NCBI GenBank assembly: GCA_964017235.1
Contig: OZ024933.1
Span: 10,667,962-10,731,961 of the forward strand
Reading direction: 5' to 3'
DNA length: 64,000 nt
Source: Sabellastarte sp. h YS-2021
Taxonomy: Eukaryota > Annelida > Polychaeta > Sabellida > Sabellidae
Below, one piece after another: positions 724-42,691 of the stretch (positions within the stretch are counted from its first letter, which is position 1; each line of letters begins with the position of its first letter). Both the position numbers and the translations under genes were made by a program. The notes under the pieces were generated by a model that worked only from the letters and a program-made list of their open reading frames with translations, was not told the DNA's origin and made no database searches.

Positions 724-807
724 AAGAAATCGGAACCAAGCTACTCCAGTGAGCCTTCTCCAACCACTGACGCTGCCGTGATGGAAAACGGTCTCCTTGG
801 CCAACAG
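724..807 (+). CDS. Gene A, cytoplasmic-tail exon (internal, phase 0-0)
   Basis: This 84-base exon is bounded by an acceptor (pyrimidine run then TAG) and a donor (CAG|GTAAAA). Only one of its three frames is open, giving 28 residues that begin KKSEPSYSSEPS and end VMENGLLGQQ. The peptide is Ser/Pro/Glu-rich, as expected of an unstructured intracellular tail. The exon is a multiple of three and begins and ends in phase 0. Its C-terminal half matches the tail exon of gene B at 35134-35212 in pattern (E, N/S, G, then L near the end, Q last). I infer that A and B are related neighbours. The protein family was not recognised, and the 5' part of the gene lies outside the window. Confidence 0.55.
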
Positions 808-1333
808 GTAAAATATCCTGGTAACCTTTCATCCAGCCCAGAAAATCATTAGAAAAGGTGAAATGACACTGCTAAAGTTTGACTGTTTCAGTAATGATAA
901 ATATGTAAAGTCAAATTACAGTTAAATATTGATATTGAAAATGCACAGCAATTCCTGTACTGCAGATGGTCAGTACCAGTATAGCACTAGTTGTTAGATC
1001 TAAAGTGAAATCCATGACTATGTTCATTTTTCAGTTATATTGAACTACTGTAGTAATACGATTTCTCTGTGGATTTTTATATTTTACTTTGTTTAAAAAT
1101 TGATTTTTATATAGTATATATATAGTTGAGCATTTGATATACTGGCTATATTTTTACTAGAATTCAGTAGCATTATCTTGATATTATGGTATTTGCATAC
1201 TTCATCAAATATACCATTCCCTTCTGATGGTTGTACTGTTGTGGCACTGAGTGATCCTGGCCGTTCCTCTCCTCCCGTCCTTATTTGTTCCATAATATAA
1301 GTCATGTCTATAGAGTTGAAAACACTTAAACAG
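808..1333 (+). other. Putative last intron of gene A
   Basis: AT-rich sequence between the tail exon and the proposed terminal exon. It starts with GTAAAA and ends with CAG, although the sequence before that CAG is purine-rich and a weak acceptor. Nothing else was recognised. Confidence 0.35.
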
Positions 1334-1375
1334 AAAGAATCCGATAAGTCAGGGCAAGAGGCACTAGGGCAATGA
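1334..1375 (+). CDS. Gene A, putative terminal exon
   Basis: After an AG at 1332-1333 the phase 0 frame reads KESDKSGQEALGQ and then TGA at 1373-1375. This is in the right phase for the exon at 724-807. It resembles the last exon of gene B (ANGDGQEKKEV then stop) in length, charge and a shared GQE. The acceptor has a poor pyrimidine tract, so the call rests mainly on phase and on the similarity to gene B. A transcript read crossing 807 to 1334 would settle it. Confidence 0.4.
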   Translation, partial: KESDKSGQEALGQ

Positions 1376-1784
1376 CAATGACGATTACTCTGTAAATGTG
1401 TTGAAGGCAGGGCTGCTGGCAGGTAGCAGAGAGACTGTATATAAGCAGAAAGACATTAGGCATTGAGAGACCACAGAGTCAAGTTGTAGACTTTTCTGTT
1501 GTAAATCTTGCACATATTGCAAAAGGGCATTCCCAAAAGAAAGATATAAGTCTCGTTGTTGTAGATTGTTATCATCAAACAGAATTAAAATATGTAAAAG
1601 ATGTTTCCTGTGTCACTCAATTGTCTTTTTACAAACCTATAACTAATGTCCCAGCTGTTAAATCTTGCCTGTAGGGGCAAGAGTACAAAAAGTTTTGGGA
1701 AACTTTAGAAGCTTTGGGTACTGGTCCAAAAGTACTAAAAATTCTCAAACAAGGCTACATTCTCCCCTTCGGACCCTGTCAAAC
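1376..1784 (+). other. Probable 3' UTR of gene A with ATTAAA signal
   Basis: Non-coding sequence downstream of the proposed stop. An ATTAAA hexamer at 1584-1589 could be the polyadenylation signal, about 210 bases after the stop. Nothing else was recognised before the repeat that follows. Confidence 0.3.
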
Positions 1785-2035
1785 TTGACCATCTACACCC
1801 CTCAACCAGTGCCTACCAAGTATTAACATCCTACATAATATGGTTAATAAGGTCACTGAAGCATGTCCAAAGGAAAATTCAAGGTCACATCATAGCATTG
1901 CATACCTCCAGGATCCAACCAATCTCCCTTCTAAGTGTTAACTTCCTACACCTTACAGTTTCTGAGATACCGCTAGGACAGACCTTTTTCCAACGCCTGT
2001 CCACCCACATACCAGAATCCCTGCCCAGCTGAAAT
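1785..2035 (-). repeat. Dispersed copy of the ~145-base satellite family
   Basis: Read on the minus strand, this stretch has the same landmarks in the same order as the array at 20037-20960: GTATCTCAGAAACTGTAAGG, then GTAGGAAGTT, then a motif like GGGAGATTGGTT, then a TGTGACCTTGA block. About one and a half units are present. It shows that the satellite unit also occurs as isolated copies in the opposite orientation. Confidence 0.6.
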
Positions 2036-2267
2036 GTCTTTGAGTTAGATTCTGGAAACACAACTTCAAGAAAGCAGCAATAGTAGCCAACTTGATTTTC
2101 GAAGTGGTACAAATTTCAAAAGTAAGCCAGCCCAGTCGTTAGCCTACCACCCTGTTAAGTTTCAAACTGATCTGACAAAGTGTCTTCAAGTTGAGTCTAA
2201 AAATGGAATTTCAAGTGGTGACCATGGTGGAATGGGAAAATTTACAAGATTTAGTAGACTTAATAGA

Positions 2268-2510
2268 CTAAATAAATGCAGTGCGTGGAATCACAGTCTT
2301 GACGTGAGTGAAGTTAGAGTCTCTCCTGGCCAGTGTCAAGTTAGCCATTGACACAAACACGAAATCTGTCGTGTTCCATGATTTTTGCCACAGCTTAGGT
2401 AATGTAGCATTGAAGTCCATTAAAGCATTCTTGTAAATATCCTTCCCAGAAAAATCCTGTAAAATGCTTAATATGCCTGATATCAATATGACAGCAACCA
2501 AATCATTCAT
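2268..2510 (-). mobile_element. Possible retroelement gag-like fossil
   Basis: An 80-residue open stretch on the minus strand has a run ending LARRDSNF that resembles the ARRD-type motif near the end of gag-like ORF1 proteins of tyrosine-recombinase retroelements. The match is a personal recollection of the family pattern, not an alignment. The piece is isolated, short and without recognisable ends, so it would be an old fragment if real. It could instead be an unrelated open frame. Confidence 0.25.
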
Positions 2511-3049
2511 TATAATGTGTAAAATACTAGTTTATAAATATTTAAACTAGAAACCTTACATAAGATATCTTAAAAGTAAGATATTGAGGGACTACATCTA
2601 GGCCCATCCATGCATCAAATGCTTAGTATTACTTGATTTTAATAAGACAAACACCGAATTCTTCATTATTATGTGGAGAATACTAATATATTTAATCTGT
2701 TCATCCCCCAGTCCACCTTTTTCTGTCTTCCAGCATCTGACATCACACATTGTTTCCACTCATTTTAAAGAAAATTATTAGAGTTAGCTTCATCAAATTT
2801 GGGTCTGTGTCTTACTTGGGATTGCTTTTAGCTGTTGTAACTATTTTGCTTACTGAGTAATACCCACGTGCAACTATTTTCAGTACCTATTTAAGTGAAA
2901 ATTGCATTTATGTTAAAATGGTTCAAGATGTTTAGTGACAAATTGGGAATACAAGGTTGTTATGTCTATAGCTTGCTTCGTTTTGCATTTGGGACTGATA
3001 GCTCTGTAAGTAAGCAAGTAATAGCAATTTAGGTATTTTATTGGCTATT
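2511..3049. other. AT-rich intergenic sequence
   Basis: No exon, RNA gene or clear element was seen. Two short similar stretches around 2505-2540 and 2655-2690 (CATTAT-ATGTG..AAATACTA type) hint at an old local duplication. Confidence 0.3.
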
Positions 3050-4230
3050 TTCAATACTACTTTTGAGTAATGTGCGTATATCTCAGAAAATGTTACAGAT
3101 AGAGTGACTTTGAGCAAAGTTTTTACCCAAAGGGTATTGCAGGATTATCCTGTGTAAAAACAAAAAAAAATTAAGCAACTTCTGGCGGCCATCGTGGATT
3201 TTAGCGGTATCTCAGAAAATGTAAGGGAATAAAGTGAACTTGAGCGAAGTTTGGGCCCACATGGCAGTACTTCTTATGCAAAAGGGAAAAAACTGAATTT
3301 TTGCCACATTTGTTGGCCATCTTGGATTTTAGCAGAAAAAAAAAATGTAAAAATCTGGGAAACTGTAAGACAGAGTGATTTCGAGTGAATTTTTTTTTGC
3401 TCACAGGGTAGTACAAGGATGTCCCATTGAAAAGTAAAATAATTTCAATTTTCGCAACTTATGGCGATCATCTTGGATTTAAGTGGAAAATAAAGTGCAA
3501 ACATCTGGAAACCATAAGAGATAGAGTGATTTTGAGAGATTTGTTTACCCACAAGGAGTACAAGGATGTCCGATTGAAAAGGGGGAAATTTCAATCTTCA
3601 CAACTTATGCTGCCCATCTTGGATTTTAGCGGTTGTTAAAAAATATCTCAGAAACTGTAGGAGATAGAGGAAGTTTGATTGAATTTTTGACTAGGAAGGT
3701 AGTACAGTTATATGTCATTGAAAACGGAAAAATTTCAATTTTTTCAAAATATGGTGGCCATCTTGGATTTTAGCGGAAAATAAAAACTTGAAAATTTCTC
3801 TAAAACCGCTAGAAATAGAGCCATTTCGAAGACTAGCTTAAGCTAAAGGGATGAATTTTAATTTTCGCAACTGTTGGCAGCCATCTTGGAATTTAGCGAA
3901 TTTTTGACTCACTGGGTAGTAAAATGGTATCTGTTATAAGAGGAAATATTTAAATTTTCACTTTGGCAACCATCTAATATTTTAGCCAAAAATAAAAACA
4001 ATTGTAACCATCTCAGAAACTGTAAGAGATAGAACTATTTTGAGTGAAATTTTTCCAGTACGGTAGTAGTAGAGTATCATTTGTACAAGGGAAATCTATT
4101 AATTTCTCAGAAGTCAAAAGAGATAGAGCCAATTCAAGCAAATTTTTCACCCGCAGGGTAGTTCAAAGGTGTCCTATTAAAATAGAAAATGTTCACTTTT
4201 GCCACTTTTGTGCGCTTATCTTATTTAGTG
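3050..4230. repeat. Degenerate tandem array with CCATCTTGGAT motif
   Basis: A unit of about 125-150 bases recurs roughly eight times. Each unit has a block like GGCGGCCATCTTGGATTTTA, then an A-rich stretch, then CTCAGAAACTGTAAGAGATAG, then a TTTTTGCCCACAAGGTAGTA-like block, then CAATTTTCGCAACT. The CCATCTTGG block is found near 3187, 3312, 3466, 3613, 3755 and 3880, with a more diverged one near 3968. Small open frames inside the array (for example 3427-3639) follow the repeat and have no coding support. The units differ from each other considerably, so the array is old. Confidence 0.8.
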
Positions 4231-27020: not shown

Positions 27021-27023
27021 TTA

Positions 27024-27179: not shown

Positions 27180-27560
27180 CCAATTATTTTCCCCGCCATC
27201 AACAAAATGTCCAGTCCCAGGCTTCCTCAGGCCTCCTCAGACCCAAATTTACACAGTCCTATGTTGTCCCAGGCCTCCTGTGACCCTTGGTCCCAGGCAT
27301 CCGTAGCTAACTCCCAGGAGGCCTGTTTGGCAGTCCCCGACTTATAACAGACCTATGAAGTTCTATACGTGTGAAAAGGAATTGATTTCATTAATCCTGG
27401 GACGGTGTCAGGTAATCTGGGACTCCAAAATCAAGGTTTGGGACTAAGCCCCGACTAAGAGAAACTGACCCTAACCAATCCAAGCTGGCCTCCTCAGGAC
27501 ACCTGGAACCACACAAATTTAGTCGGTTACAGTCTGAGGACTCCCCAAGAGGCCTGGGAC
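27180..27560 (+). repeat. Harbinger left subterminal motif cluster
   Basis: Many copies of CCCAGGC(C/T)TCCTCAG-like sequence in both orientations, with GGGACTAAG(C/T)(C/A)CCGA and GACTAAG pieces. The right end (30670-30910) has the same motif in inverted arrangement, for example CTGAGGAGGC and CTGAGGAC. Such clusters are expected to bind the element's own proteins. Confidence 0.65.
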
Positions 27561-27797
27561 TAAGTACCGATTAAGAGCCTACTATTTTATGTACGTCAGA
27601 AATTAAAACGAGGCACTGAGTGGGTCGTTTATAAGACTATGTAAGTGACTGCGCACACATTCTCGTTGTTATTGACTTGTTGGCTACTGAGAGACGTGTG
27701 TCACTGTTTTGTAGGGGTTTTCCGTTTCTTTTAAATATCATATAATACTTGAGCTTAAGGCAAATTTTACAGTTAGGAGATACATTTTATTTTTTTT

Positions 27798-29010
27798 ATG
27801 TTTTTGCTATTGACTAGAGTTGTGAGGAAAGAGAAAGGAGGAGAAAGAGGAAATAAGAAGATGGATGAGAGGCAAGAGGAGAGGAAGGAGGAAGGTGGAG
27901 AAGTGGAGGAAAGTACACAGGAAAGGGTAGAGGAAAGGACAAAGGAAAGGACAGATAAGGGTACAGAAGAGACAGAGGAAAGTTTGGAAGTTACTGAGGA
28001 AGCTCGAAAAGAAGATGAGAGGTGTGAGAAGATTCAGAGTGTCACTCAGCAGCAAAGAGAACCAGGGTCTGTGCTACATTCACGGACAGCCAAGAAACTG
28101 CAATTGTGGAGTTTGTGAAGGAGCATCCAGAGCTATACGACAAGGAGCATGCACATTTTCACGATGGACAGAAGAAGGAGGCTCTCTGGGCAGAAATCTC
28201 TGCAGAACTGAAGCTTCAGGCCTTTGATGTCAGAAGATGGTTTGAATCCCAGAGAATGCATAATGGCAAGCTACAATCTAGCCAAGCCCCAAGGGAGATG
28301 ATCAAGAGACAGTCCTGAGTCTATCAGCAGATGGGTTTCCTTAAGACCCACATCAGATGCAAGGGGGGCAGCAGAAGCTCTGGGTTTGAGGCCAGTCCAA
28401 ACACCAGCAAGCTGGACGAATCTCGTGAATCCACTACTGATACAGAACACCTTGAGTCCAGTGTCCTGAGTGAGAGTAGGAGTCAAGCTATGTTCACATC
28501 TACACCAGTTTCAACAGACTCCACGATACTCGAGTACTTTGACCAGATGAGGACACTTAGGACATTGATCACAGGTTTCCTGCAGCAGAAGTCAGACAGG
28601 CAGCCCTTCTTGGACTACATGGCATCAGAGGCTGAAAAGATGACCCAAGAGGAGTTTGAATAATGAAGACATTGAAAGCATTAAGAGCAACCGTAGAAGT
28701 CAACCACTACCTAGAAGATCAGCCACTATCACCACAGAGTCCCACAACCAAGCAACAGGTGTCTAGTTCCACCCAAGCTGCAGATAGCAGCAGTTACGTC
28801 TACTACACACCCAGCCCCATTGGCTTTGGAAACCCTATATCAGTTCTAGCAGTGCAGAACGAGGGCAGTAGACACAACCTAAGTGGAATGCTAAGCCAGC
28901 TACCAGATCTGACATCAACACAGATCATTGAGCAGCCTCAGCAGCAGCAGCAGCCGCAACTCTTCACTATCACCACCACAGCACCGCCTCAACAGCAGCA
29001 GCCTCCTTAG
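27798..29010 (+). pseudogene. Harbinger Myb/MADF-like accessory protein, broken
   Basis: The N-terminal frame (27798-28118) is a charged, Glu/Arg/Lys-rich stretch. The DNA-binding core is in another frame (from about 28024): TDSQETAIVEFVKEHPELYD, then KKEALWAEISAEL and VRRWFESQR, a MADF/Myb-SANT type helix bundle with the tryptophan typical of these domains. An in-frame TGA at 28316-28318 sits where a relative in this window (52662-53384) has Trp. The frame then continues VYQQMGFLKTHIRCKG to 28663. A third frame (28663-29010) ends in glutamine runs. In related elements this protein helps bring the transposase into the nucleus and to the DNA ends. Confidence 0.7.
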
Positions 29011-29721
29011 TAGCCATCCAGTCAGGGTGAGTCTTTGACCTGCCAGGCCCTTTTCAGGGCCACCCAAATATTCCAAAAATAATTTATTAAAAATCCCCTC
29101 CAAAAACATATCAGTTCAGTACAAATACTTATTACAAGAAAAGAAAAAAAAAGTTCAACACCCACACCACCCCCAAATATTAAACAAATAACCCATGGTA
29201 CTACACATAACGAAAAAAGGCCACATAGAAAAAAAAATAAATAAACTACCTATATGGCCAATAATCAGCCCATTTTTAGCTTAAAATGTAGGGGATAGGT
29301 TTAAATCTGTTATAAAAAAGTCCAACACTTACACCATCCCTAGAGTTAAAAGGCATTATCACATAGCTACCAACTAAAAAACAGACAAACCCAATACCAA
29401 ACATAACCACCAACCAAGAAATAGACAAACCCAATAGCAAACAGAACCCAAACCAAAGAATTGACAAACTATTTTGCAAACATAACCCCTCGTAAGTGTA
29501 AAGAAAACCAGTTTGGTGGTTATATTTTCTAAATATTTGTGAAGTGTACTAAAAGAATTTAATTTTAAGATTTTCAGTAAAGGAAATAATTTCAGTCAAA
29601 TGTAAGTCGAATTTTAGGGTGTAGCTTTCATAATATGTGCAATATTTATTCCATTTAGGAAGTAATGACCTTGATACTTCTCAGTATGTTGTGCGGAACC
29701 ACACAGGTAAGGACCACTTCC

Positions 29722-30509
29722 CTAAATGTTGCTGGGGGAGTTCAACATAACTCTGAATCTTGAGACAAGGATGCCAAAAGTGTTTTCAACAACTCTCCTG
29801 CCCCTTGATATTCTGTAGTTGTTGGCAATCCTTTCCTCTCTGGTTAACATCCTTCTGCCATAGGGTTTCATGAGCCAGGTCTTCAGGGCAAATGCATCAT
29901 CTGCCAGGATGAAGTAGGGGACATCTCTACCAGCCTGGGTTATAGGTGCTGGGTCAGGGAAGCCTATCCTGCCATCCTCAATCTTCCTGTTCAGCTGACA
30001 GGCATTAAATATCTGGGCATCTGAGCAAGATCCAGTTGTACCAGTATCCACCCATCTGAACTTGTAATGTCCATCTACCAAGGCCAACATTACTATGGAA
30101 AAGACTCCCTTGTAGTTGTGGTACAGGGCTCCAGTGTTCTTGGGTTTCTTCAGGGCCACATGCTTTCCATCAAGGGCTCTCAGGGCATGTGGAACATTCC
30201 ACCTGATCTTGATTTCCCTTTTGAATTTACACTCTTATGGAGTAGTAGGACAGCGTGCCTGGCTTGACGTGGTTCCAGTCTGGTCTTTATCATTTCAAAG
30301 AATTCTGTGGTCATCCTCATGTAATTGGTGAATCCTGGAATGTCTGTGGTACAGCCATAATGTTCCGGTAGGGCCCCTCTCCTCTCTCTGTAGTAGCCAT
30401 GGCCTGACCCACATGTTGTCCCTTCTTTTAGGTCTCTGTATGGGTGGTGGTGGTGGTGCTGGAGGTGCTGGTGGTGGTGGTTGCTGTGGTCGACGTAGAA
30501 ATACATCAT
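29722..30509 (-). pseudogene. Harbinger DDE transposase (HARBI1-like), internally deleted
   Basis: Two minus-strand frames. The first (30509-30180) starts with a His-rich run, then GCTTDIPGFTNYMRM..FFEMIKTRLEPR, the transposase N-terminus. The second (30159-29722, open back to about 30210) has [38 protein letters not shown] with the first Asp, [19 protein letters not shown] with the second Asp, and [11 protein letters not shown] with the Glu. All three DDE residues are present. About 80 residues holding the helix-turn-helix (LRHLATG.. region) are missing between the two parts, with a frame change. About 50 C-terminal residues are lost at a TAG at 29722. The missing middle is present in the second Harbinger at 52312-52600. 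Confidence 0.85.
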
Positions 30510-30669
30510 TATATGTAACTGAATAAAAACTTAAAAATCCCTAAGTTCTTGTTGAAGCTGTCTTCTATTAAAAGGTGGTGTCCTGCTGTGTTCCCAGAAA
30601 GAAAATGATGATTAGATCGCGGAATTTATATGTATATATATACCCAGAAAATCCAGTTATTTTGCAAAA

Positions 30670-30910
30670 CAAGAATCGGTCATCATGGTCTGGGGAAGAC
30701 TGAGGAGGCCTGAGGACCCCTGAGGACGCCGGGACTGAGGAGGCTTGAGGCATCCTGGGACCCAGTTGGTATGTCTACGACAAGATCATGGTTCAAGCTG
30801 ACCAGAACAATGACTTAGTTGTTTCTTAGTCTCAGACCAGTCTGGGACTGTGTGTGGCTGCCTGGGGCCGCCTCAGGCTTCCTGAGGCCGATCTGTACTA
30901 AATCCCAGGC
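30670..30910 (-). repeat. Harbinger right subterminal motif cluster
   Basis: Contains CTGAGGAGGCCTGAGGAC, GGACTGAGGAGGCTTGAGGC and related repeats, the inverse of the CCTCAGGCCTCCTCAG motifs at the left end. The two clusters are placed symmetrically with respect to the terminal repeats. Confidence 0.65.
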
Positions 30911-30983
30911 TTTTATACCGATTCAGTTCTCCTGCCCATTTTACCCTTTTTCATGGACTGTCCACGATTAAGGGTCATGGACA

Positions 30984-31017
30984 GGATCGGGGCTTAGTCC
31001 TTTGGTGGAACGGGGCA
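30984..31017 (-). repeat. Harbinger right terminal inverted repeat
   Basis: Plus strand GATCGGGGCTTAGTCC..GGTGGAACGGGGCA directly followed by TTA. Inverted, it matches the left end. Confidence 0.8.
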
Positions 31018-31020
31018 TTA

Positions 31021-31489
31021 CTGGGAATGACATACCTACTAAGATTGTTGACTGACCAACATATCACACTTTCAGAAGTTTTGTTGTACTGTTATAACTC
31101 ATTGAAAATCATTTCTTTGTGCTTGTGTCTATTATACATCAGGGGCATGTTTTTCTTAATGATTTCTTGTTAATCTCTTTGTTCTTACTACTGTCACTTC
31201 TTCTTTCATAATTTAAGGTGACATTGATGTTCTTGTACATGCAACCTTGTTTAAAGTGTAAACAAACCTACCCATTTACATGGCCATACATTGGATCTGA
31301 TACTAAGCATAAGCAATTCTTCTTTCATCAGCAATTTGACAGTGATTTAGTTTTCAATAATACATTAGGTTTCCTCTGCCCGTCCAACTACCCATTGTGA
31401 TATGACCTGTACAGTGTTGAAAGTGGCGTAAATCCCCAACTAAACAAATAAAACACATTAGGTAAACCCCATCATGATTTTGCATGCCC
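31021..31489. other. Gene B intron spacer
   Basis: A 60-codon plus-strand frame (31218-31400) may be decayed endonuclease sequence of the LINE that follows, but no motif is readable. Otherwise nothing seen. Confidence 0.3.
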
Positions 31490-33060
31490 TGTGATAAACC
31501 AAGTAAACCTCATTTTGTACCACAGGTATAAAAAAATTGGCATTAATAGATTTTGTGATGATCTTGTCAATACTTCTTTTGTCATGTCCCCTGCTTCCAA
31601 TACTGTGACACTATGTAAACAATATATTTGTGGTCTTGGATATGTATTAAACAAGCATATCCCATTTATTTATGGAAAAACTAAAGAAAAAAGTCAGCTG
31701 GATGGTTTCTGTTTTATATTGTAATGTCTAATTTATCAGGTGTGAATTTAAGCATTGTTGTGTGGTGTAAAGAAGGTCTCAGATGATGAGATCTCACTTG
31801 TGCAGACAGGTTGCTTAATGCAACACAATCATCGAAGAGACTATGGTGAATGCTATAGAACTATCATTAATGACAATAGTCATGACCAAAATTAGCTGTA
31901 TTGGGTGCTTTGACATGCCCTCGATAAGAGTCGTTATTCTTCCTTGACATTGGTGAACCAAACTTTTGGATAATCAATCTGTTTCTTTCTTTGTGAAATT
32001 ATCAAAAGCTGCTTGCCACTCAGTTGACCATAACACTGTTCTTGATTGCCTTAAAACATGGTTTGAATGCAGCAAGACATTGATGTTGTTCATCTCCCAT
32101 CTAAGCTCTCGCACAATATAATTTAAATTTCATCAACCCTCTCTGAATTGCATGAGCTCATGTTTAGTGTCCTTCAATGTACACCATTCCTTTGATTAAG
32201 TTTATTGAAAGGCACCCAGCATAAAATTGTACTTTTATGCCGACTACTCAGTTGTTATATTTCTGAAAAAAATTATATGTCCCACAAAATACAAGAATGG
32301 GAGTTCCTTAGTAAAATTAATGTTAAAATTATTGTTAAAATTAAATAAACAAAACTTCATTATATTCGTGCATAGTTCTCAGTATTATATATGATATTCC
32401 CAAGTCCCTGTCAGAATGTGTTTTAAGTACATACACCCAACAATTCCTGTAAAGAACCTTGGTGTGTGGTTCGATGCAAATTTTAACTTTTCAGTGATTA
32501 TGTCATGATTGGGAAATAGTCATCTTGACAATTGTAATCCTCTCAGAATTGTGTCCATTTTTACATGTAAAAACTCCACTGTTGCTTAAAATCTTACTAG
32601 GATTGTCACAAACTGTAATAAATACACACAGCATTTCCTATTCTCAAAAGACGCCATTGGGTGCCAGTTGAATGTTGTTGTATCTTCAAAACAGCCACTT
32701 TGTTTTTTTTAAAGTTTTCTCACCGTGGTTATCCCGGCTATTTGGGCTCTCTTTTTTTCTGTTTGTTGTAGTGAATGTGGTACCTGGTATGTACCTTATC
32801 AGCTAAAAGGTTCTGAAAAAAATCGCAGTTCTCTCCATCTGTACCATCTGTGTATAAATCCCCCCCCTCAAAAAAAAAAAAAAAATAAATAAAATAAAAT
32901 AAAAACACTTTAGTCACAGCTTTGCTTTTAATGCTTCTACGGTTTAGAATGACTTACTTGATGATTCTGCTGTGCTCCACTCTTGTCTGTTTTAGGAAAA
33001 GAAAAAAAATATATTATGTCTTACCCACTTTATCTCATAAACTATGCAGTTTCCTTACAG
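31490..33060 (+). mobile_element. Strongly decayed CR1/L2-type LINE
   Basis: Conserved landmarks are readable in changing frames and in the right order. YHRYKKIGINRFCDDLVNTS (about 31509) parallels the linker YHQYHKLIIDKFRSDLLTIP of the LINE at 22150-25056. CHSVDHNTVLDCLKTWF (about 32010) is motif A. YFYADYSVVIFL (about 32232) is motif C with the second catalytic Asp changed to Tyr. VKNLGVWFDANFNFS follows near 32450, and RHWVPVECCCIFKTATL near 32655. It has many stops and frameshifts, so it is much older than the LINEs at 17.6 and 22 kb. A long A-rich run (32868-32905) lies within it. Confidence 0.75.
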
Positions 33061-34319
33061 TTTCAGCCCGGCTGTGTCTGTTGAATAATGTTTATTGAAA
33101 TATGTTCTCTCATTGCACCTTAGACTTTGCTCTGAGCAGAGATAAAGTACTTTTAAGGTCTATATTCGTGGTATTACAGTTGAGCTCTATTTACAGTGGT
33201 GATTGCACAGTCCTGACCCTGGACAAATCCAATCTAATCAGGCAAGCTTATCAAGGTTGTGAGCATCACAAACATATTTAATATATATTTGTTGCCGACT
33301 ATATGTATAAGTTGCTGAATATGCTACTAAACTCCAAAAATGGGCTCCATCTTGAGGCTTGTGGTAATAGTGAGATGACAGATTGGATAGGTTTGAACAC
33401 AATCCTATGAATACATCATGTGACATCTCTGACACAATGGGTTACAAGACGCAGACCTCCTCCTCAATTTTGGCCCTCCTTTGTTTGGCTGATCGTTTTT
33501 CTTTGCAGGGTTCCATTGGTGTCAGTCATAGGTCTGTGTTGTATATGTAGTCATATGTATCTATATATATAATATAAACAATATCATTATATATCATATA
33601 AAAAGGAAACAAAGTAGTAAATGAGTAGCCAAAAAACAGAAAACAAATGTCCTTCTGTTCCCCTGTAAATATGCTTTGTATTATAAGTAATTATTGCCCT
33701 TCAAAATGTATAATATTCAATAATGAAAAAATGCATTGAATGTAGGTTAATCAAATCACATCTCTTATGACATGTTAAAAGCCTTAAGAAATTTCGTATA
33801 GCTTACCACTGAAGGTGTTTTACAAAGCATTAAGCTTTAAAGTCTAGGAAAATTGAAATGGAATGACGTAAGTTGTTTTATAATTTAGAGTTCAAGTTGC
33901 TTACACAATCTTCTTCAGCCAAATAGATTGTAATTTATTACATTGATAAATTCTTATCTCTATAGAGTGCAGCGCATCATTTTCGATATAATGATCAAGC
34001 TAAATAGTAGAATAATGTGTTTTTTGCAGGGTATTGTAATGATTTATGGCGTTCCTGTAAAAACCTATAATGTCTGTGCAAAATCATATTATTACTATTA
34101 CTTTTAGATCTACATTTGTCAGTATTATTCGTCTAAAATCTTATAACTGATATTATTACTATCATTTTCTTGCAAACTAAAGTCCCTCAAAGGAAAGCAT
34201 ATATGTTGATTCAGTTGTTTCTTCGTAACTGTAAACACACTTTAATGTTTACTTTAATGCTTCAAGACAACATAACTTTTGTATGAATTTTATTTATAAA
34301 CCAGAATGATAAAAAAATT
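33061..34319. other. Gene B intron, nothing firm
   Basis: A TTTGCAGGGTTCCATTGG stretch near 33505 might be a remnant of the LINE motif B (GVPQGS region), too short to be sure. TA-rich runs occur at 33545-33600. No exon recognised. Confidence 0.3.
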
Positions 34320-34395
34320 AAGAAGTGGTACAGAAGGGATTTGAATCCTCGACCTTAGGATTGGAAGTTCTGGGTGTTGCACTGACGACCACTGA
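34320..34395 (-). repeat. tRNA-like sequence (SINE head or tRNA pseudogene)
   Basis: On the minus strand GTAACTCAGTGGTCGTC resembles a tRNA A box and GAGGATTCAAATCCC resembles a B box with the T loop, about 45 bases apart. Stems pair poorly (the T arm has mismatches), so it is not called as a working tRNA. No matching 3' tail of a SINE was found next to it. Confidence 0.45.
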
Positions 34396-34880
34396 GTTAC
34401 AAAAAATTGAGAACCTGTTAAATGTTATTTATTTTTTCATCCGTAATGCACTCGTTCAAAAGATTCTTTAGAAGTGGGGGTTTCAAATTTCTAACGATTT
34501 TTTTCTTTTCATTTATCGTCTTTGATGCTTTATATTCATGCCAACAGTGGTTATTTAAATTATTGTAAAATAAATCATTCGTATAGAATAACTTAAGTTT
34601 AACTTAAGTGTGGACCATATTGGTTGAATAATAAATCCCCTCACAGTCACAAGAAATCCGTTTTTCGTAAATATATTAATATTAACTTCTCGCTTTTATG
34701 TTATTAAAATCCATGCAGAAATAAGGGCTATATTGTTATAGAAAATCTGAAGTGAGAGTGGATTATTTTAAAAATACTCGGTGACGTCAGAGGTGAGCCA
34801 TTAATAGTTCAGCACTCTTATTCATGGTCTGCCACTCAATGAAGTGCGAACTATACTGCTTTACCGTACCGTACAAGTAA
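34396..34880 (+). other. Gene B intron
   Basis: AT-rich intron. Nothing recognised. Confidence 0.3.
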
Positions 34881-34923
34881 ATGATAAGTTCTGAGAACCC
34901 AAGCTTTGATGGAAAATCTACAG

Positions 34924-34942
34924 AGAATTACACAGGCACAAG
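34924..34942 (+). CDS. Gene B, candidate juxtamembrane microexon
   Basis: The donor is AAG|GTATGC at 34942/34943. Taking the acceptor CTACAG at 34918-34923 gives a 19-base exon that enters in phase 1 and leaves in phase 2. That is exactly what is needed to join the transmembrane exon to the tail exon at 35134, and it contributes E-N-Y-T-G-T-R. The same frame stays open back to an ATG at 34881 and reads SSENPSFDGKSTENYTGT. The NPSF motif is typical of cytoplasmic receptor tails, so a longer exon beginning at 34890-34910 is possible if another exon corrects the phase. The pyrimidine tract is weak in all versions. Confidence 0.45.
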
Positions 34943-35133
34943 GTATGCCATGTATTATTTCTCTTGGTTTGGAGGGAATGTATATGTTTCTCCTATCCCT
35001 GCCCGCAAGTGTACCTAACTGTGCAAAATTTTCTGTCATGTTTTCGTTTTAAAATGTTATAACCTGTAAAAATATTGTTATAATCACAAAGAGTCTACAT
35101 TTGTCCATATCTCTATTCCTTTTGAATGGACAG

Positions 35134-35212
35134 GATTCCAGAACGACTGGGAGTACAATTCAAACCATCCAGTCAAGAGGATGAATGTGAAAGTGGACCC
35201 CTTAATGAACAG
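35134..35212 (+). CDS. Gene B, cytoplasmic-tail exon
   Basis: A 79-base exon with acceptor TTTTGAATGGACAG and donor AACAG|GTAAAT. Two frames are open. In the preferred one (entering in phase 2, leaving in phase 0) it reads IPERLGVQFKPSSQEDE and ends ECESGPLNEQ. It is acidic and Ser/Pro-rich, and resembles gene A's exon at 724-807, which also leaves in phase 0. In the alternative frame (phase 1 in) it reads GFQNDWEYNSNHPVKRM and would join directly to the transmembrane exon. The first is preferred because of the match to gene A and because the next exon then closes quickly. Confidence 0.6.
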
Positions 35213-35234
35213 GTAAATATATTCTCTCATCAGT

Positions 35235-36000
35235 CAAGGTCACGACATATTAAGTTTCAACACAAAATTGAACACACACAAACTTAAAAAAATTGTTAAG
35301 AAACTAAAATTACTTAAACGACCCCACATAGAAACATAGAGGTTGTAAATGACTGGTTTATACAATGTAAAATCTAAACGGTGGAGCAGTGTTGAGAAGG
35401 TAAACATGTAACTGGTGGAGCAGTGAAGTGCTGATGTATACACATGGCCAGACAAAGGTGTAGTGCAGGGTGACGAAGGGGAAGGAGGGAGTGACGTGTT
35501 GCTCCAAGAACTTCCAACAACAATGATGCAAATTAACTTTGTAAGCCAGAAAGTAAACAAACTATGGCGGGAAAATAAGGCTGTGAACATTTACTGACAC
35601 ATGTAGTATAGCCATTAATGAGGCACGTGGTTTAAGGTTAAGTAAACAATAAATTCAAAAACAAGCCTGCCAGAAAGGCAGTGAATTCTATTTACACTGA
35701 CACATTTGACACTAATTAGGCATATGACTTGAACTGGATTCCTGACTTTGTTACAAGTAATTAAGACCTGGCCCTTAACTGAAAAGTTGTGACAAGCACA
35801 ACCAATACAGTCAAGGTCAAGGTCCAAGATAAGTTAGTATAGATAGTTGGTATTATAAAACAAACAATATATATAATGGGATAAGAGCCTTTTATTTTAC
35901 AAAACACACAAGTACGACATATTAAGTTTCAACCCAAAATTTGACACACACTAATAAATTGGTAAGAAACTAAAATTACTTAAAAGGCCCAAACTTTTAT
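35235..36000. repeat. Direct repeat pair beside DIRS-like fossil C
   Basis: A block of about 80 bases starting GACATATTAAGTTTCAAC occurs at 35243-35325 and again, diverged, at 35916-35990. Both contain AAGAAACTAAAATTACTTAAA. The second copy ends just before the tyrosine-recombinase fossil. These may be terminal or internal repeats of that element, which are known for DIRS-type retroelements. Open frames in between show no family resemblance. Confidence 0.5.
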
Positions 36001-36089
36001 TTAAGTAGGATTTGTTGAAAAGTAGTGGCCACCGTTGAGGAGGCTTTTGGTGTGTGTTTGAAGTAGTGGTTTATTGCAGAGGAGGACCA

Positions 36090-36500
36090 GCCCCTATGTG
36101 CTTTTAAGTTTTGAGGAGGATGTTGTGGTCAGCGGCCCAGGACTCAGCTGATTGCCTGGATATGTGAAAGCCATAGTTGGCTGGATTGAGGCCAAGAGAC
36201 CTGATAATTTTTGTAAGATTGGAGGAGACCATGGATGAAGTGAGGATAGCGAGGCCAGTGGGAAAGGGAATGAGGAAGAGGGGAGAGAAGGGAGGGGCTG
36301 AGAGCAAAACCAGGAGGGCTTTGAGGGCAGATTTCGGGCACAGAGGGGATGGGGAGAGTGAGGAGATTTGAACCACTTGGTGGGCATTTGAGGACTGCAA
36401 GGACTTGCTCCACTTGAGAAAAATGTGAGCCCCAGGGGGCCAAAACTTATGTCACCTCTGAGTAGATTTCTGGTGGCGTCAAACGACGGTTTCCACCAGC
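36090..36500 (-). mobile_element. DIRS-like fossil C (tyrosine-recombinase part)
   Basis: Minus-strand sequence shows a GDIS-F-GP-GL segment, a LCPKSALKALL segment and a C-terminal LGLNPANYGFH region, in the order found in DIRS-type tyrosine recombinases. Only the recombinase part is recognised. It is broken and old. The direct repeats at 35243 and 35916 lie downstream in the element's own direction. It sits between two exons of gene B, in the opposite orientation to the gene. Confidence 0.6.
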
Positions 36501-37230
36501 CTGAAAGAAACCCGTTGCTCACTCGAATATGCGACATGAGAATCATTCCAATCAATATTTTTACCTGGACCTGCACAGAAAAATAGTTTGTCAATATTCT
36601 TTCCATTTTTAAATGATTTTTTACTAGTGCTTACGGGAAACATCAAATGACACTACATAAATAAAGCCTGAATGTATTTTGATACTCCTACAATGACTAC
36701 AACGGCTAGTGTTGGCCAACTGATCTTTACAAAGTTGCAGTGAAACAAAAATATTTAATATTTCTAAATGTGCTATGCTGTATTACAAGCATATTCTCAA
36801 ATGAATTTTTACGGATGGCGATTAAAGCTTCTGTGTATGTCAATACTCTATGTTTCAATTAAGGAAGCTACAATAACACGATCAATGCTTACAATGGAAT
36901 TACTTTGTGATAAAAAAGATACTACAAAAAGCAGGGAGTATTTATATCGCTCTTGAGAATATTCTTCAGAATATATAAGTAAAGTTATTGTTACTTAGTG
37001 TCTTTTTTGTACGTGTACGTCCAATATGATTCCAATATGATTTTTGAGTTTTAAATTTCGAAATAGTTTCGATGACATACTAGTTTGTATAATGCTATAT
37101 AATTTTGTCTTTTGAAATACATTTTGCTGATGAAAAAGTTTATACAAGGTGCAAATGCATTTGTAAAAGTTGATGTAACATATAGATAAATATATTGATA
37201 TAAATAACAATGGTCTCTGTTAATTTTCAG
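36501..37230 (+). other. Last intron of gene B
   Basis: AT-rich intron ending in a good acceptor, CTGTTAATTTTCAG at 37217-37230. Nothing else recognised. Confidence 0.4.
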
Positions 37231-37266
37231 GCAAATGGAGATGGGCAAGAGAAAAAAGAAGTTTGA
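37231..37266 (+). CDS. Gene B, terminal exon
   Basis: Following the acceptor, the phase 0 frame reads ANGDGQEKKEV and stops at TGA (37264-37266). Joined to the tail exon it gives a short acidic, then basic, C-terminus similar in length to gene A's KESDKSGQEALGQ. In the alternative frame (one base from this exon completing an AGG codon) the coding part would run QMEMGKRKKKFDMIYLNRGLL in two overlapping pieces and stop at 37295-37297. Both frames are fully open across 35134-35212 and this exon, which is unusual. The conserved neighbour supports the first. Confidence 0.55.
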   Translation, partial: ANGDGQEKKEV

Positions 37267-39200
37267 TATGATTTATTTGAACCGTGGCCTTCTCTGAGAA
37301 CAAACAAGAGGATACTTTTAGAGAATACTACAAAATATTTTGTTTGTTCTAAAACATCTATCCATTGTGTTTTCATAACATATTTTTCAGGAGTAACACT
37401 CTCCTTGTTGATTATAACTTCTATAGTAATTCACTACTTCATATAGATGAATTATTTGTGTGCTAATTTGTTTGAGTACATGATTTACTACAATTATGCT
37501 TTAAAATAGTTAATGTTGCTTGTGTTTGCATGTCACAAAACCAAATGCTATGTATGATAATTGATTTCTAAGATCTTGTATTTGTTATATATATTTTTAA
37601 CTGTATATCTGCATGTATTCGTTACACAAACTTGTTTTGTTATGCTTAATGTTTGCTACTTTTAGTATATATATTTATACATACCAGTATGTACACTTTG
37701 CCAAACTATTATTATAGAAAACTTTATTTAACCGCTTTAAAATGTACCCATTTAGACTTTTCCATTCAAATCACCATGTTTCTTGTAGAGGTACCTTACA
37801 AGCAACACTGTTCAACTTAAGTTGGGAAAAATGATTGTGATGTTTTCAGAACTGATCACTTCGAGCAACAGCACTAAATCTTTATTTTCCTATATCACAT
37901 TATTTCCATGATATATTTCTGTATTTTGAAATCTTTACACATTTATTTGTCTAACTCAAATTACTCCATTTAGTAGTGGCTTATGTGGCTTATTGCATTA
38001 TAAAATCTTTTTACATTATTATTTCTTGTGTATTATTTCTAGATAATTCCATCTAATTTTACAACATGGACTATTAATTTCTTACTGATTTATCTATTTG
38101 TTATGTTATATGTAACACTGGTCATTGATGTATCATATCAGTCAACACCTTCACAGCTCGTAGACATCCAGTTAAAATAACAAGTCTAATTTTTTATCCT
38201 TTTTACACTGAGAAAGTATGAAATTTAAGCATTGTCTCCGCTGCTTTGTATGCAAATTCATTGTGCATTTGCCTTGTATGTGTTTTAGTAAGAACTGTGT
38301 TTTAAGTGTGTGTTGCAAGTCCAAGTCTATGACACAAGCAAGCTATTACTATTCCTAGCTAGACAGTCCATATTAATTCAACCAGAATGAGAAAGGTACC
38401 AGCCAGACAAAAACAAGGCATATATAATAATGCCCAAGCTTATCTGTTGGACAGACACAGAGAGACATATCATTTATATCAGGCAACACATTATTTGGCT
38501 AACTCAAAATTCATTCAAATCCTATTATCTGAACTTTGCAAAATTCAACATGGTTACTAAAATGATTTGACTGTGGAACACTTGAAACATTCTTTAACAA
38601 TTGCTGAAATAATATCCATCATTCAACATTCTGATGAAAAATTGATATTTGAAAAACGTTGAAGGTGTGTTAATGAAGGCAGGCTGTGAAAAAAATAAAT
38701 GTCAAGATGGGAAAAACAATTTAATAACAGTGAAGAGTGAATAGTTAGAGTGAACATGAATGAATTGTGAAATATTTGTGAAATTGTGGTATGTGAAAAC
38801 ATGATAATAACTTTACTCAAAAGCAAATAATTTCAATAAAAGATGTACAGAGTATTTATTTGTGTTTTCAATGACTTTCCTAAAGATCCTGTCTTCTCCA
38901 ATGTCTGCATAGCAGCTGGATAAGGTAATTAAATAGCCACTCTTCTTGCAGAAACTCTTTTATCAAAGCCATGCAAAATTCACACTTTCCAGAAAACTGA
39001 ACTTTCAATACAACTCCCAGAAATTCAAAAATGTGGCAATACAACAGTGATAGCCCAGCGAAGGGACTGAATTGGCTGAGAGTTAACATTATCAAAACGT
39101 CCTCAATGACATATACAAAAAAACATCATAAATGAAGACGACAATGATATGTGAGTGCATAGCAAAAGCATTATACTGTTACTTTCTTATATAATATTAT
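37267..39200 (+). other. 3' UTR and downstream flank of gene B
   Basis: AT-rich non-coding sequence. AATAAA at 38835-38840 is a reasonable polyadenylation signal, about 1.6 kb after the stop. Nothing else recognised. Confidence 0.35.
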
Positions 39201-39313
39201 ACAGATAATGACCAAGTGGCACTCCATTATATAAACTTAATGGCCTGAGGCCCTGAAAGGGCCGAAGGGTCATAAAGTTTACATAATGGAAGTGTCAGGA
39301 GGCAATTATCTGT
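39201..39313. repeat. 113-base hairpin element
   Basis: Inverted repeat: ACAGATAAT at 39201-39209 pairs with ATTATCTGT at 39305-39313. CACTCCATTATATAAACTT pairs with AAGTTTACATAATGGAAGTG. At the centre GGCCCTGAAAGGGCC is itself a hairpin. This layered palindrome looks like a tiny MITE or foldback unit. It shares the CTCCATTATG motif with the hairpin at 40624-40655. Confidence 0.65.
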
Positions 39314-40561
39314 TATAAAACCCTGTAAATTAAAACCAATTTATTAATTAAATAATTTAACACCTTGTACCAAATGATCAACCTAGACAATCTTTGTAAT
39401 GTTTCCTTTGGTGTGCATACCATATAGGGCTTTTATAAATTAGTTCTATGTTTCTTTGTTTCAATACACAATCAACATTGTTTCAGCACATGTACCACTG
39501 GTTTTCCTTTGTGGAAAAATATAATTTTGGATAAAGCTTGAAAAGTTTTAATATAATCTGACTGCCACAAACTTTAACCATGGATAGTGATAATTGATAA
39601 AATATGGATCTGTGACTTACAGAAAGCACTTTTCAGAAAACAAATAGACTGCTCATTAAACAATGCTGTGGATAATTTGTTGTGGTGAGTGTTTCATGTT
39701 ACTTTATTAATCGGTGCTTATTTTAAGACAGTAAGCTATTATTTTTGTGTTTCAGACATTGAAAGTACAAGAAACTGGAAAATTACCTACTTCTTTTATT
39801 TTGTGTTGAAGTTTTTGGGTTTCTCAATATTTTATTTTGTGTGCTTCTTTGTCTTTTAATTTGGAATCAAGGAAAAAGATCGTCTCCAGGAAAAAAGCCT
39901 CATAGAACGAATGCCTACTCCACATTTTGTATTTCAGTAATACCTCCTATGAATATTAATCCACAACATTAAGAACAAAATTCATTAAAACCATCGTGTA
40001 TCATTTTAGGAGTATATAACAAACTGTAATAAGGTAAATTTAAATCTTTGGTTTAAACTTGAAAACATTGAATATTTAAATCAAATTTAAACCCAGCAGT
40101 AATGCATTTCAGCACTGCATTTTTCAACTACGTTTTTTTTTCATTCTACTTCAGTCAATTTTGAGCCACTAAAAACGCTCCTTTTAATATAGTATGCTGG
40201 GTTAGATTTTCAGAGTGAGTTTGTTTGAAAGTTAACTGCTCCTTTAACTTCACAGAAGATTATTGCCAAAAAATGACATTGTAAAGAAATGCAAAGAATC
40301 AAGAAATATCTAACTTTATAAATTAAATTGCTTGTTTTTTATTTGTCAAGAGGTATATTTTCAAGGTAGCATTTTTCCATGAGGTGTTTTCCTATGCACT
40401 CTGAATGTCATTCAGAATTGAAAAAACTTTATAAATGTACCCACTGAACTAATTAATATGAAAGAAGTTGTGAAAACATTTCAATATTGAATGTATTGTG
40501 CTGAGGGTGACTGGCAAATACCCTTTTGTTCTTGGCAGACTGGACAATGAACTAAACCACA
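39314..40561. other. AT-rich intergenic spacer
   Basis: No exon, RNA gene or repeat partner recognised. Confidence 0.3.
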
Positions 40562-40622
40562 ATCCACTGTAATAATGTGGTGTAATAATGTGCTGTAATA
40601 AGGTGGTGTAATAATGTGGTGT
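40562..40622. repeat. 13-base minisatellite
   Basis: About four copies of GTAATAATGTGGT (one with GTGCT, one with AAGGTGGT), immediately followed by the hairpin at 40624. Confidence 0.7.
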
Positions 40623-40623
40623 T

Positions 40624-40655
40624 AACTCTCCATTATGCAAACATAATGGAGAGTT
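40624..40655. repeat. Perfect 14-base-pair hairpin
   Basis: AACTCTCCATTATG, loop CAAA, then CATAATGGAGAGTT. The stem is perfect. No T-run follows, and in a eukaryote this is not a terminator. It is more likely the end or core of a small palindromic element related to 39201-39313. Confidence 0.7.
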
Positions 40656-41764
40656 GAGACAATAGAAGGGTGGCCCATCTGGGTTTTATAAGGGAATAAT
40701 GAATAAAAACTCAAATGATAATTAGATCCAGGATTTTAATGTGAAGTGAATAGGAGAAACCTTCAGATATTTTATAACCCCAAGAGCAAAAATTATGAGA
40801 AAAATAGTATAAAAATGATGAAAGATGACAATGGTCATTAATTGACTAAACAGGCCAGAAATTAACCATTAAAAGACCTTATCTGTCAAGTAGCATTCGA
40901 AAGCAATATGTATTCTACATGACCATGTCTGTTGGCTGGCATTCGACATACCCATATGATAAGCCAGCTTTCCTTCAGTACTGTAGAATAAAACGTCTTG
41001 GTATATATAAATACTTTATTTAAAGTATTATGTACGGGGACGTTATGGATGACGTAAAACACTTGTGGTGAGTTTTTTAGTAACTTAAACTGTCTGCAAG
41101 CTCTTGATCCAAGATTTTCCTTCAGTGTAGTAAAATAATCCTCCGTTGGTGTTGTGGGAACTAAATATATAAAAATTCTACTATCAAAATCTCTTTGCAA
41201 TACAGATAAAAATATTGGAAAATGTATACTAGGAAGAACTTTTAAAATTATCTAAATGTACCTGTCCATGTGAAGTAAGTGAAGTTCTGAAGTGAATGGA
41301 ACATAACAAAACTGCAGGAATGGATAACATTAGGTCTTTATTTCTAAAATGAGTATGGACAAAATTAAAATTTCCGTTTACCAGGGTAATAAATAGATGG
41401 AAATAAAAGGAGATAAAGAATGATGCCTTTTGAAAATCTGGAAACCATTTTGGTGTGCTGCCAAACCAGATTAAACCTATTCTTGATGAAACCATTTCAG
41501 AAACTCACAGGGCAGACAGATGAGTGATTGCACAAGGCTTATTATGAGGCATTTGACTCCATTTCTGGAAATTTTCATACAACACTCTTGACTTTTTGGC
41601 TTAAGTGACAAAATTGGTGATTGGGTTTAACTTTTCGACAATGAAGTTAAAATGTATGTACTACAAAGTGGATAACTGTATGAAGAAACACATATCAGTT
41701 GATAAGGTGATCATTTCTCACAATAACTAAATACCTTTATTGCCAAGATTATGGCGCTCTTTTT
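40656..41764. other. Intergenic spacer without recognised genes
   Basis: Two minus-strand frames of 88-104 codons (40886-41200 and 41229-41495) have no family resemblance. There are faint LINE-like hints (for example ACTGCAGGAATGGATAACATTAG near 41312 on the plus strand), too weak to call. Confidence 0.25.
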
Positions 41765-41975
41765 TTACTTATTTATTTGGGGTTTTAACATCACTGTAAA
41801 CACTGTAAAGGTTGTATCTCGTACTTTTGTAGGAAGGCGAGACCTGTATATACAGTTTGCCAAGTTTTTGTACTGCACACTGTTGATCATCAGTAAGGAA
41901 CTAGGGCTTGAACTGCTGACCTCAGGGTGGGAGGCAAGTGTGTTACCTCTGTACCACCGTGGCTCACCTGCTTTG
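41765..41975 (-). repeat. tRNA-derived SINE
   Basis: Minus-strand head: GAGCCACGGTGGTACAGAGG (A box region), then CACTTGCCTCCCACCC, then AGTTCAAGCCC (B box), as in the copy at 25160-25240. The tail, toward 41765, ends in GTTAAAACCCCAAATAAATA and an A-rich run, which is a plausible SINE 3' end. Open frames here on both strands follow the repeat. Confidence 0.6.
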
Positions 41976-42630
41976 ATTATACATAATCCAGAAATCACAG
42001 ACATTTAAAATAAAAATATCTATTAAAGAACAACTTAACATTTCTGTAAATCTTGATTGGGCAATTTAGAGTTTTTAACTTTCTGGGATAATTTTTAATG
42101 TCAATTTGAATGTTATGCCAGAAATAAATTTATTTAATATTGTGTAAAAACTAATCTTTGGAATATATGAGACAGTTGACAGTAATAAGAAAAATAACTG
42201 CACTGAAAAAACTTGATACTTTATAAATTTAGTCATGTTTTTTTAATCTTACCATCAAAGGAAAAAAATCTTTGGAAGTTTCATTTTTTCCAATTTCTGT
42301 GGAGTAACAACCAGATAAAATAAAAAGAAATTGTGACTATACTATTGGTGGTTATTTTATGAAATGTACAGAGATAACAAAAGCATTATTTGAAAATAAA
42401 ACATTTTATGATTTTTTTTGCTAAAAAGATGACTACTCTCTGGATTCATGTACTTTTAAATTGTCACAGACTTTGCTTGAAAAAAACATTATTTATAATA
42501 ACAACCTAGGTATTTTCAATTTTTGTCTGCGGTATAATCCCATAAATCTATGAGGGACATTTATACTTCTCAGGCGTGTATAGAAAGGGATAATTTTCTC
42601 ATTGGTGGTAGTGTGAATAACAATGGTCAA
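41976..42630. other. Spacer upstream of gene C
   Basis: AT-rich. The frame of the signal-peptide exon stays open back to an ATG at 42550, but the sequence there is not hydrophobic. No promoter motif can be assigned with confidence. Confidence 0.3.
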
Positions 42631-42691
42631 ATGAAACCTATTGGAAAGAGAAATATGACGTTAACTCTCATATACTTGATAGTCATCACAG
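42631..42691 (+). CDS. Gene C, candidate signal-peptide exon
   Basis: From ATG 42631 the frame reads MKPIGKRNMTLTLIYLIVIT and then meets a donor ACAG|GTAAAT at 42691, leaving in phase 1. A basic n-region (K, K, R) followed by a hydrophobic core is a classical signal peptide. First exons of type I receptors commonly end in phase 1 just after it. The position, 5.4 kb downstream of the gene B stop on the same strand, fits the start of a next tandem gene. No ectodomain exon was recognised downstream, so this is a partial and uncertain call. The inner ATG at 42655 would leave too short a signal. Confidence 0.4.

What the first reader, a model, noticed from the sequence alone, without database searches (positions are those of the whole stretch)
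724..42691. Tandem cluster of related single-pass receptors, mostly hidden in short exons
Gene A's tail (724-807, 1334-1375) and gene B's tail (35134-35212, 37231-37266) share layout: a Ser/Pro/Glu-rich exon ending in phase 0 with E-x-G-x-L-x-x-Q, then a very short terminal exon containing GQE. Gene B also has a textbook transmembrane exon (21616-21717), and 5.4 kb after its stop there is a signal-peptide-like exon (42631-42691) ending in phase 1. All are on the plus strand. Together they suggest an array of type I membrane proteins whose large introns have filled with transposons. The ectodomain, and hence the function (immune, adhesion or other), is not visible.
Basis: partly seen in the sequence, partly recalled or inferred. 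Interest (0 to 1): 0.7.

Follow-up and report, generated by a model that had tools for sequence, protein, structure and literature searches.

The report
Giant array of immunoglobulin-like receptor genes
The window holds the tail end of one gene and a headless fragment of another from a chain of about sixty related cell-surface receptor genes spread over ten million bases of one invertebrate chromosome, the kind of fast-duplicating family that animals often use to recognise microbes or other cells.

Summary
The core of the finding is real, and larger than proposed. The window's genome is held (C7:10667962-10731961). Comparing copies revealed the missing ectodomain: two exons forming a V-set-like immunoglobulin domain, two forming a Cys-rich, perhaps FN3-like domain, then the transmembrane (TM) exon and a short tail. 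The 81-codon V exon has 75 matches, 63 on C7: 43 on the + strand (6.49-13.65 Mb) and 20 on the - strand (12.64-16.88 Mb); 64 of 75 are full length and stop-free. Splice sites are kept; median omega is 0.24-0.45 in 15 genes.

Gene A's ectodomain lies just upstream of the window (C7:10641615-10657123); only its tail is inside. Alone of ten V domains checked it keeps both canonical Ig cysteines; it aligns weakly with TCR-alpha V domains (E 0.24).

Gene B is TM plus tail only: no ectodomain exon was detected between 1375 and 21616. The 'signal peptide' exon at 42631-42691 sits in a dispersed repeat and is rejected. The 19-nt exon at 34924-34942 is unsupported. Function (innate or allorecognition) is inferred, not shown.

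The parts
724..807 (+). Tail exon of gene A, whose ectodomain and TM exons lie upstream of the window: E2 C7:10641615-10641742, E3 from 10653457, E4 from 10655948, E5 from 10656991, TM from 10666043. Reading frame uncertain: shifted by one base against the 11.29 Mb copy.
1334..1375 (+).
29..3118 (+). 3' end of gene A and flank, duplicated in four pieces at C7:11290558-11294964; the profiles find no TM or ectodomain exon in the 26 kb fetched upstream of that copy.
21616..21717 (+). Transmembrane exon of gene B (phase 1-1), one of 10 copies found by DNA search, all on C7 and all +.
35134..35212 (+). Cytoplasmic tail exon of gene B; in-frame copy at C7:10470372-10470444.
37231..37266 (+). Terminal exon of gene B with stop; in-frame copy with conserved stop from C7:10471419.
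19441..55309 (+). Segmental duplication, in pieces, of C7:10459584-10486256 (over 28 alignable segments, 13.9 kb: identity 0.825, K2P 0.20); carries TM and tail of gene B but none of the ectodomain exons that precede them at 10.447-10.457 Mb.
34924..34942 (+). Proposed 19-nt micro-exon: not supported, acceptor absent from the closest copy.
42631..42691 (+). Proposed signal-peptide exon: rejected, part of a dispersed repeat.

Best explanation
The window is a slice of a roughly 10.4-Mb array on one chromosome that arose by repeated local duplication and loss. Each complete gene encodes a small single-pass receptor: signal peptide, a V-set-like Ig domain split over two exons (E2, E3), a Cys-rich domain over two exons (E4, E5) that most resembles FN3, one TM exon, and a short tail (46 and 54 residues in the two genes read through) without a signalling domain that I recognise. 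Most of the members checked have replaced the two cysteines that normally pin the Ig fold; gene A has kept both. In the window, gene A contributes only its tail, and gene B is an orphan TM-plus-tail left by a segmental duplication that did not carry, or later lost, the ectodomain. Shown: exon structure, copy number, orientation, purifying selection on the ectodomain of 15 genes, no detectable ectodomain for gene B. Supported but not proven: the Ig fold (fairly strong) and the FN3 fold (weak). Inferred: the N-terminal V domain binds a ligand or its own kind, the array supplies a diverse surface repertoire, and its use is recognition (defence or self/non-self) rather than a fixed housekeeping role.
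For: Ectodomain exons recur upstream of the TM exon in three separately fetched copies, with matching acceptors, donors and phases 1-0, 0-1, 1-1, 1-1, 1-1 (read by eye). In one search, 39 of 39 further E2-E5 copies (6, 11, 11, 11) show AG before and GT after at the expected place. The E3 scan scored 77 of 77 candidates: 75 matches, 63 on C7, + copies and - copies in two largely separate runs, 64 of 75 full length without stop (hand count). NG86 omega medians over 15 genes (9 for E2): 0.24, 0.35, 0.45, 0.32 for E2-E5; 3 of 349 scored pairs above 1. V-set: D-x-G-x-Y in 14 of 15 E3 copies; both canonical cysteines present together in gene A; its V domain (start of E2 left off) aligns over 86 of 107 residues with TCR-alpha chains, 5 of 7 PDB matches (E 0.24-1.2); Pfam ig 0.2; JAM 0.64; titin and NCAM2 0.33, 0.39. 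FN3: RIM-binding protein 0.79, the only PDB match to the second domain; Pfam Fn3_Dep-1_2nd 0.032, one member of 15; IFNGR1_D2 0.082, one member of 12. Of the 10 TM copies, 9 have E5 (8) or E3/E4 (1) within 12 kb upstream; gene B has none in 20 kb.
Against: No single database match passes a usual threshold. Pfam gives nothing better than 0.032 in 15 ectodomains, and unrelated families score as well or better: DUF2527 0.025, Big_4 0.056, DUF7926 0.086. The best PDB match to gene A's V domain is an RNA-binding protein (Loquacious, 0.2), and the TCR alignments shown (three) are of nearly one V sequence, so they are not independent. NADH dehydrogenase chains score 0.77-0.91 beside the Ig matches. 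No structure was predicted. No transcript was seen. The tail exon path after TM differs between members and is unresolved for genes A and B. Function has no direct evidence; whole-exon omega below 1 gives no sign of diversifying selection. The tree of 15 members resolves almost nothing (0 starred of 12 inner branches).
Confidence: 0.72

Rival explanations
1. The receptors are ordinary adhesion or developmental (for example neuronal wiring or gamete) receptors that happened to expand, not immune or allorecognition receptors.
For: Short tails in which I see by eye no known signalling motif, in the two tails read through; whole-exon omega 0.24-0.45 shows constraint rather than diversification.
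Against: About 60 copies in one array with orphan fragments (gene B; the 11.29 Mb tail) looks like birth-and-death turnover, more usual for recognition families (established knowledge, not tested here).
Confidence: 0.3
2. Gene B's TM and tail are not a relic but an alternative 3' cassette used by gene A's ectodomain, upstream on the same strand with matching phase 1.
For: Same strand, matching intron phase, and frame kept through 3 of 3 indels.
Against: dN is not below dS between gene B and its copy (omega 1.24 over about 67 codons); gene A has its own TM exon; another orphan tail without detected ectodomain exists at 11.29 Mb.
Confidence: 0.1
3. Gene B has an ectodomain in reality, lost here through assembly error or haplotype collapse, or too diverged for the profiles.
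For: Highly repetitive locus; assembly quality at this place was not tested.
Against: The window has no N; three ectodomain exons of the divergent gene A were found by the profiles at 2e-9 to 8e-20 before gene A was put into them; and the duplication with 10.46 Mb begins only about 0.7 kb upstream of that copy's TM exon.
Confidence: 0.1
4. The exons are chance ORFs with chance splice signals.
For: True for the 42631 exon and probably for the 34924 micro-exon.
Against: Conserved exons and frames in many copies.
Confidence: 0.02

Closest known systems
Hydractinia Alr genes of the allorecognition complex (seen: passages of PMC11067881; the primary paper PMC9546547 was not held)
   Same: A genomic interval with many clustered, low-identity IgSF single-pass receptor genes plus models judged pseudogenes; Ig domains confirmed there by structure prediction.
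   Different: [quoted passage not shown] Here there is one V-like and one Cys-rich, perhaps FN3-like domain. The mitochondrial COX1 here reads AGA/AGG as Ser, which excludes a cnidarian (code known by recall). Sequence homology to Alr was not tested: no Alr sequence was at hand.
Vertebrate two-domain V-type receptors such as JAM and CD2/SLAM (recalled; JAM also)
   Same: N-terminal V domain, one membrane-proximal domain, TM, tail; CD2's V domain also lacks the canonical disulfide (recalled).
   Different: The second domain matches no Ig family better than 0.13 here; no sequence homology established.
Expanded immune families of bivalves, e.g. TNF and C1q of Mercenaria (passages of PMC8905726)
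   Same: Dozens of tandem copies on one chromosome in an invertebrate genome.
   Different: Unrelated domains; the word immunoglobulin has 0 occurrences in the main text of that paper and of PMC7831173.

Membership tests
Immunoglobulin superfamily, V-set | Paired B- and F-strand cysteines | tested here: inconclusive
   Both present in gene A; B-strand Cys replaced by F/Y in 9 of 9 others, F-strand Cys by G/A in 13 of 14 others.
Immunoglobulin superfamily, V-set | Tryptophan in strand C | tested here: not met
   In the TCR alignment the Trp faces no Trp in gene A; the E3 start is L-x-S-F-H-L in most others.
Immunoglobulin superfamily, V-set | D-x-G-x-Y motif before strand F | tested here: met
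   14 of 15 E3 copies; gene A has H-T-G-K-F.
Immunoglobulin superfamily, V-set | Profile or structure match over threshold | tested here: not met
   Best Ig matches 0.2-0.64; no fold prediction was run.
Fibronectin type III | Conserved Trp in strand B | tested here: met
   Invariant Trp in E4, 15 of 15; that it lies in strand B is inferred.
Fibronectin type III | Profile or structure match over threshold | tested here: not met
   Best 0.79 PDB, 0.032 and 0.082 Pfam.
Hydractinia Alr / allorecognition complex | Clustered IgSF-like single-pass receptors in one interval | tested here: met
   (IgSF-like, subject to the rows above)
Hydractinia Alr / allorecognition complex | Highly polymorphic ectodomains, allele-matched recognition | not testable with these tools
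   One assembly only, no binding data.
Hydractinia Alr / allorecognition complex | Sequence homology to Alr proteins | not tested
   No Alr sequence available; paper not held.

The most novel reading that the evidence does not exclude
The array is a self/non-self or pathogen recognition complex of a bilaterian invertebrate, comparable in scale to the Hydractinia allorecognition complex. Its receptors have V-type domains whose canonical disulfide was lost across most of the array and kept in a rare, divergent member (gene A).
Probability: 0.2. Interest if true: 0.85.

Novelty: new variant of a known kind. Interest (0 to 1): 0.6.

Why it matters
Sequence-based annotation would miss this family: Pfam gives nothing better than E 0.032 in 15 ectodomains, and the exons are short in introns of kilobases. 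A 10-Mb array of about 60 V-domain receptors would be a sizeable recognition repertoire in an animal group where such systems are poorly known, and gene A, with an intact Ig cysteine pair, offers a handle for tracing its origin. It also shows that hidden IgSF arrays can be found by comparing segmental duplicates within one genome.

Tried and rejected
Pfam on three plus-strand frames of window 1-10001, stops read as X: nothing. Ig_3 family scan of the genome: the 150 scored of 1031 candidates include none on C7 6-17 Mb, so that model did not show the family. A conserved exon joining TM to the B tail (phase 1 to 2) was sought in the aligned segments without a convincing candidate. Direct TM-to-tail splicing reads open in gene B (by hand) but hits a stop in its copy. 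No convincing signal peptide for gene A was found in the 1.6 kb before its E2; two weak candidates were printed. Plausible ones exist 0.76 kb before E2 of the 7.98 Mb gene and 0.5 kb before E2 of the 10.45 Mb gene, but they are not alike, and the stretch similar to the former lies 2.8 kb before the latter's E2. Gene A's E2 was first sought in 8.5 kb without success and found 3.3 kb further upstream. The species could not be named; a bivalve is only my guess from recall. Literature searches for such an array (listings only) showed no description; this covers only the open-licence library and these terms.
Full report
What was checked. The window lies at C7:10667962-10731961 of a 1.786-Gb genome of 647 contigs, which could be searched. 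DNA search with the TM exon gave 10 places, all on C7, all on the + strand, between 7.49 and 10.69 Mb. The B tail exon has a copy at C7:10470338 (the other matches of that call, apart from the window itself, are to the intron after it, query 138-201). The A tail exon has copies at 11291235 and, in part, 11161536. The putative signal-peptide exon alone has no copy in a short search, but the 1.77-kb stretch that holds it is missing from the duplicate block and matches dispersed places, ten of the 50 listed covering the exon.

Finding the ectodomain. I fetched 200 kb around three TM copies, gene A's upstream flank, the window's downstream flank and the 11.29 Mb tail copy, and compared open frames. 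Four exons recur upstream of the TM exon, E2 to E5, with matching splice sites and phases (by eye). Profiles of these exons found gene A's E3, E4, E5 and TM just upstream of the window. Gene A's E2 lies at C7:10641615-10641742 (E 5e-15 in the 5.3 kb searched). Gene A is thus a near-complete family member (signal peptide not found) whose tail alone lies in the window. The same profiles detect no ectodomain exon between 1375 and 21616: in the whole window the only hit better than E 0.5 is the TM exon itself. Nine of the ten TM copies have ectodomain exons within 12 kb upstream (8 with E5, one with E3 and E4; positions); gene B is the exception.

Size of the array. A scan with one 81-residue E3 peptide, taken from the 12.85 Mb gene, scored 77 of 77 candidates and kept 75 at E up to 0.01 (counted by hand from its table). 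63 are on C7 and 12 elsewhere (C2 five, C19 three, C5 two, C6 one, C14 one). On C7, 43 are on the + strand between 6.489 and 13.649 Mb and 20 on the - strand between 12.642 and 16.884 Mb. Of the 75, eight align over fewer than 70 residues and three more have a stop, leaving 64 full-length and open (57 of 63 on C7). Two partial hits at 8.750 Mb look like one broken exon. Gene A itself came last (E 4e-5), so copies as divergent as gene A may be missed and the count is a lower bound.

Is it coding? I fetched exon pieces of 11 more genes. Exons were assigned to a gene by nearness on one strand; on C6 they span 38 kb and may come from two genes. In one search, 39 of 39 E2-E5 copies show AG before and GT after at the expected place. 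With the three fully fetched genes and gene A, NG86 gives median omega of 0.24 (E2, 9 genes), 0.35 (E3), 0.45 (E4) and 0.32 (E5; 15 genes each), with 3 of 349 scored pairs above 1 (2 of 351 pairs could not be scored). These are 15 of the 75 loci, chosen because searches listed separate hits for their exons. Gene B against its 10.46 Mb copy is different: three of three exon indels are multiples of three (57 of 326 elsewhere), yet omega over TM and tail is 1.24 on about 47 synonymous sites. It was coding until recently, or still is, but shows no amino-acid constraint in this small sample.

What the protein is. E2+E3 read as a V-set Ig domain. In the other members the B-strand position is F or Y (9 of 9) and the F-strand position is G or A (13 of 14); gene A has Cys at both. 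Gene A's V domain, without the start of E2, aligns over 86 of 107 residues with TCR-alpha chains in five of seven PDB matches, E 0.24 to 1.2; in the three alignments shown, nearly one V sequence, both cysteines are in register. The best match is the unrelated Loquacious at 0.2. Pfam's ig model matches at 0.2, and the family profiles give JAM at 0.64 and titin and NCAM2 at 0.33 and 0.39, beside an unrelated NADH dehydrogenase at 0.77. E4+E5 carry an invariant Trp and five invariant Cys. Their signals are RIM-binding protein 0.79, Fn3_Dep-1_2nd 0.032 and IFNGR1_D2 0.082, which I know as FN3-class; DUF2527 at 0.025 and Big_4 at 0.056 score alike and are taken as noise. Each of these is below threshold alone; for the V domain they point the same way together with the cysteines, for the second domain the case stays weak. 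The tails of the 7.98 and 8.37 Mb genes can be read from TM into one further exon, 46 and 54 residues with a few tyrosines and no motif that I recognise.

How it most likely works. The V domain is distal and binds; the second domain is a stalk; the TM anchors; the tail is too short for a catalytic domain. Many similar but divergent copies, orphan tails (gene B, 11.29 Mb) and broken copies point to birth-and-death turnover (inference). Recognition of microbes or of other cells is the best guess, with ordinary adhesion the main rival.

Organism. The mitochondrial COX1 lies on C647. Of its 19 AGA/AGG codons, five fall on serines of the best PDB match and I see none on an arginine, so the animal is a bilaterian invertebrate and not a cnidarian (codes known by recall). 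Genome size resembles Mercenaria (1.79 Gb in PMC7831173, passage seen), but the largest chromosome length seen here, 190 Mb, sits badly with the N50 of 83 Mb reported for another assembly of that species (PMC8905726, passages); I do not name it.

Literature. I saw search listings and passages of PMC11067881, PMC8905726 and PMC7831173. No description of this array was seen.

Noticed in passing
window 28028-29110: Just after the stop of an ORF region with a MADF/Myb-SANT domain, inside what looks like a Harbinger-type transposon (DDE_Tnp_4 ORF at 29725-30234 on the - strand), there is a histone 3'-UTR stem-loop match (29041-29085, 35 bits, cut-off 34). A related element at C7:7970629-7974157 has a degraded version that Rfam does not report. 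A transposon borrowing a histone-type mRNA end would be unusual.
   Followed up: partly
window 6703-7516: Two tandem copies of a 407-bp unit at 99.75% identity: a very recent duplication.
   Followed up: no
window 22714-25055 and 17595-18536: LINE-type reverse transcriptase ORFs (RVT_1) on the same strand as the receptor exons. 22714-25055 is 91% identical to C7:11291693-11294105, which there interrupts the A-tail copy between the bases matching window 1118 and 1126; in the window the element lies elsewhere.
   Followed up: partly
window 44909-46459 (-): Open frames similar to copies in other fetched parts of the array that look like a tyrosine-recombinase retroelement (recalled resemblance; no Pfam hit for the two ORFs tested).
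   Followed up: partly
L084 about 1022-1141 (C7:10641021): Fragment of an E3 exon (profile positions 42-81, E 1.7e-5) just upstream of gene A's E2: another relic.
   Followed up: no
G000:C20 42.9-43.3 Mb, C6 50-54 Mb, C2 168.4-168.6 Mb, C423: Dense clusters of ordinary Ig_3 domains in the same genome (150 of 1031 candidates scored): other, separate IgSF genes or arrays.
   Followed up: no
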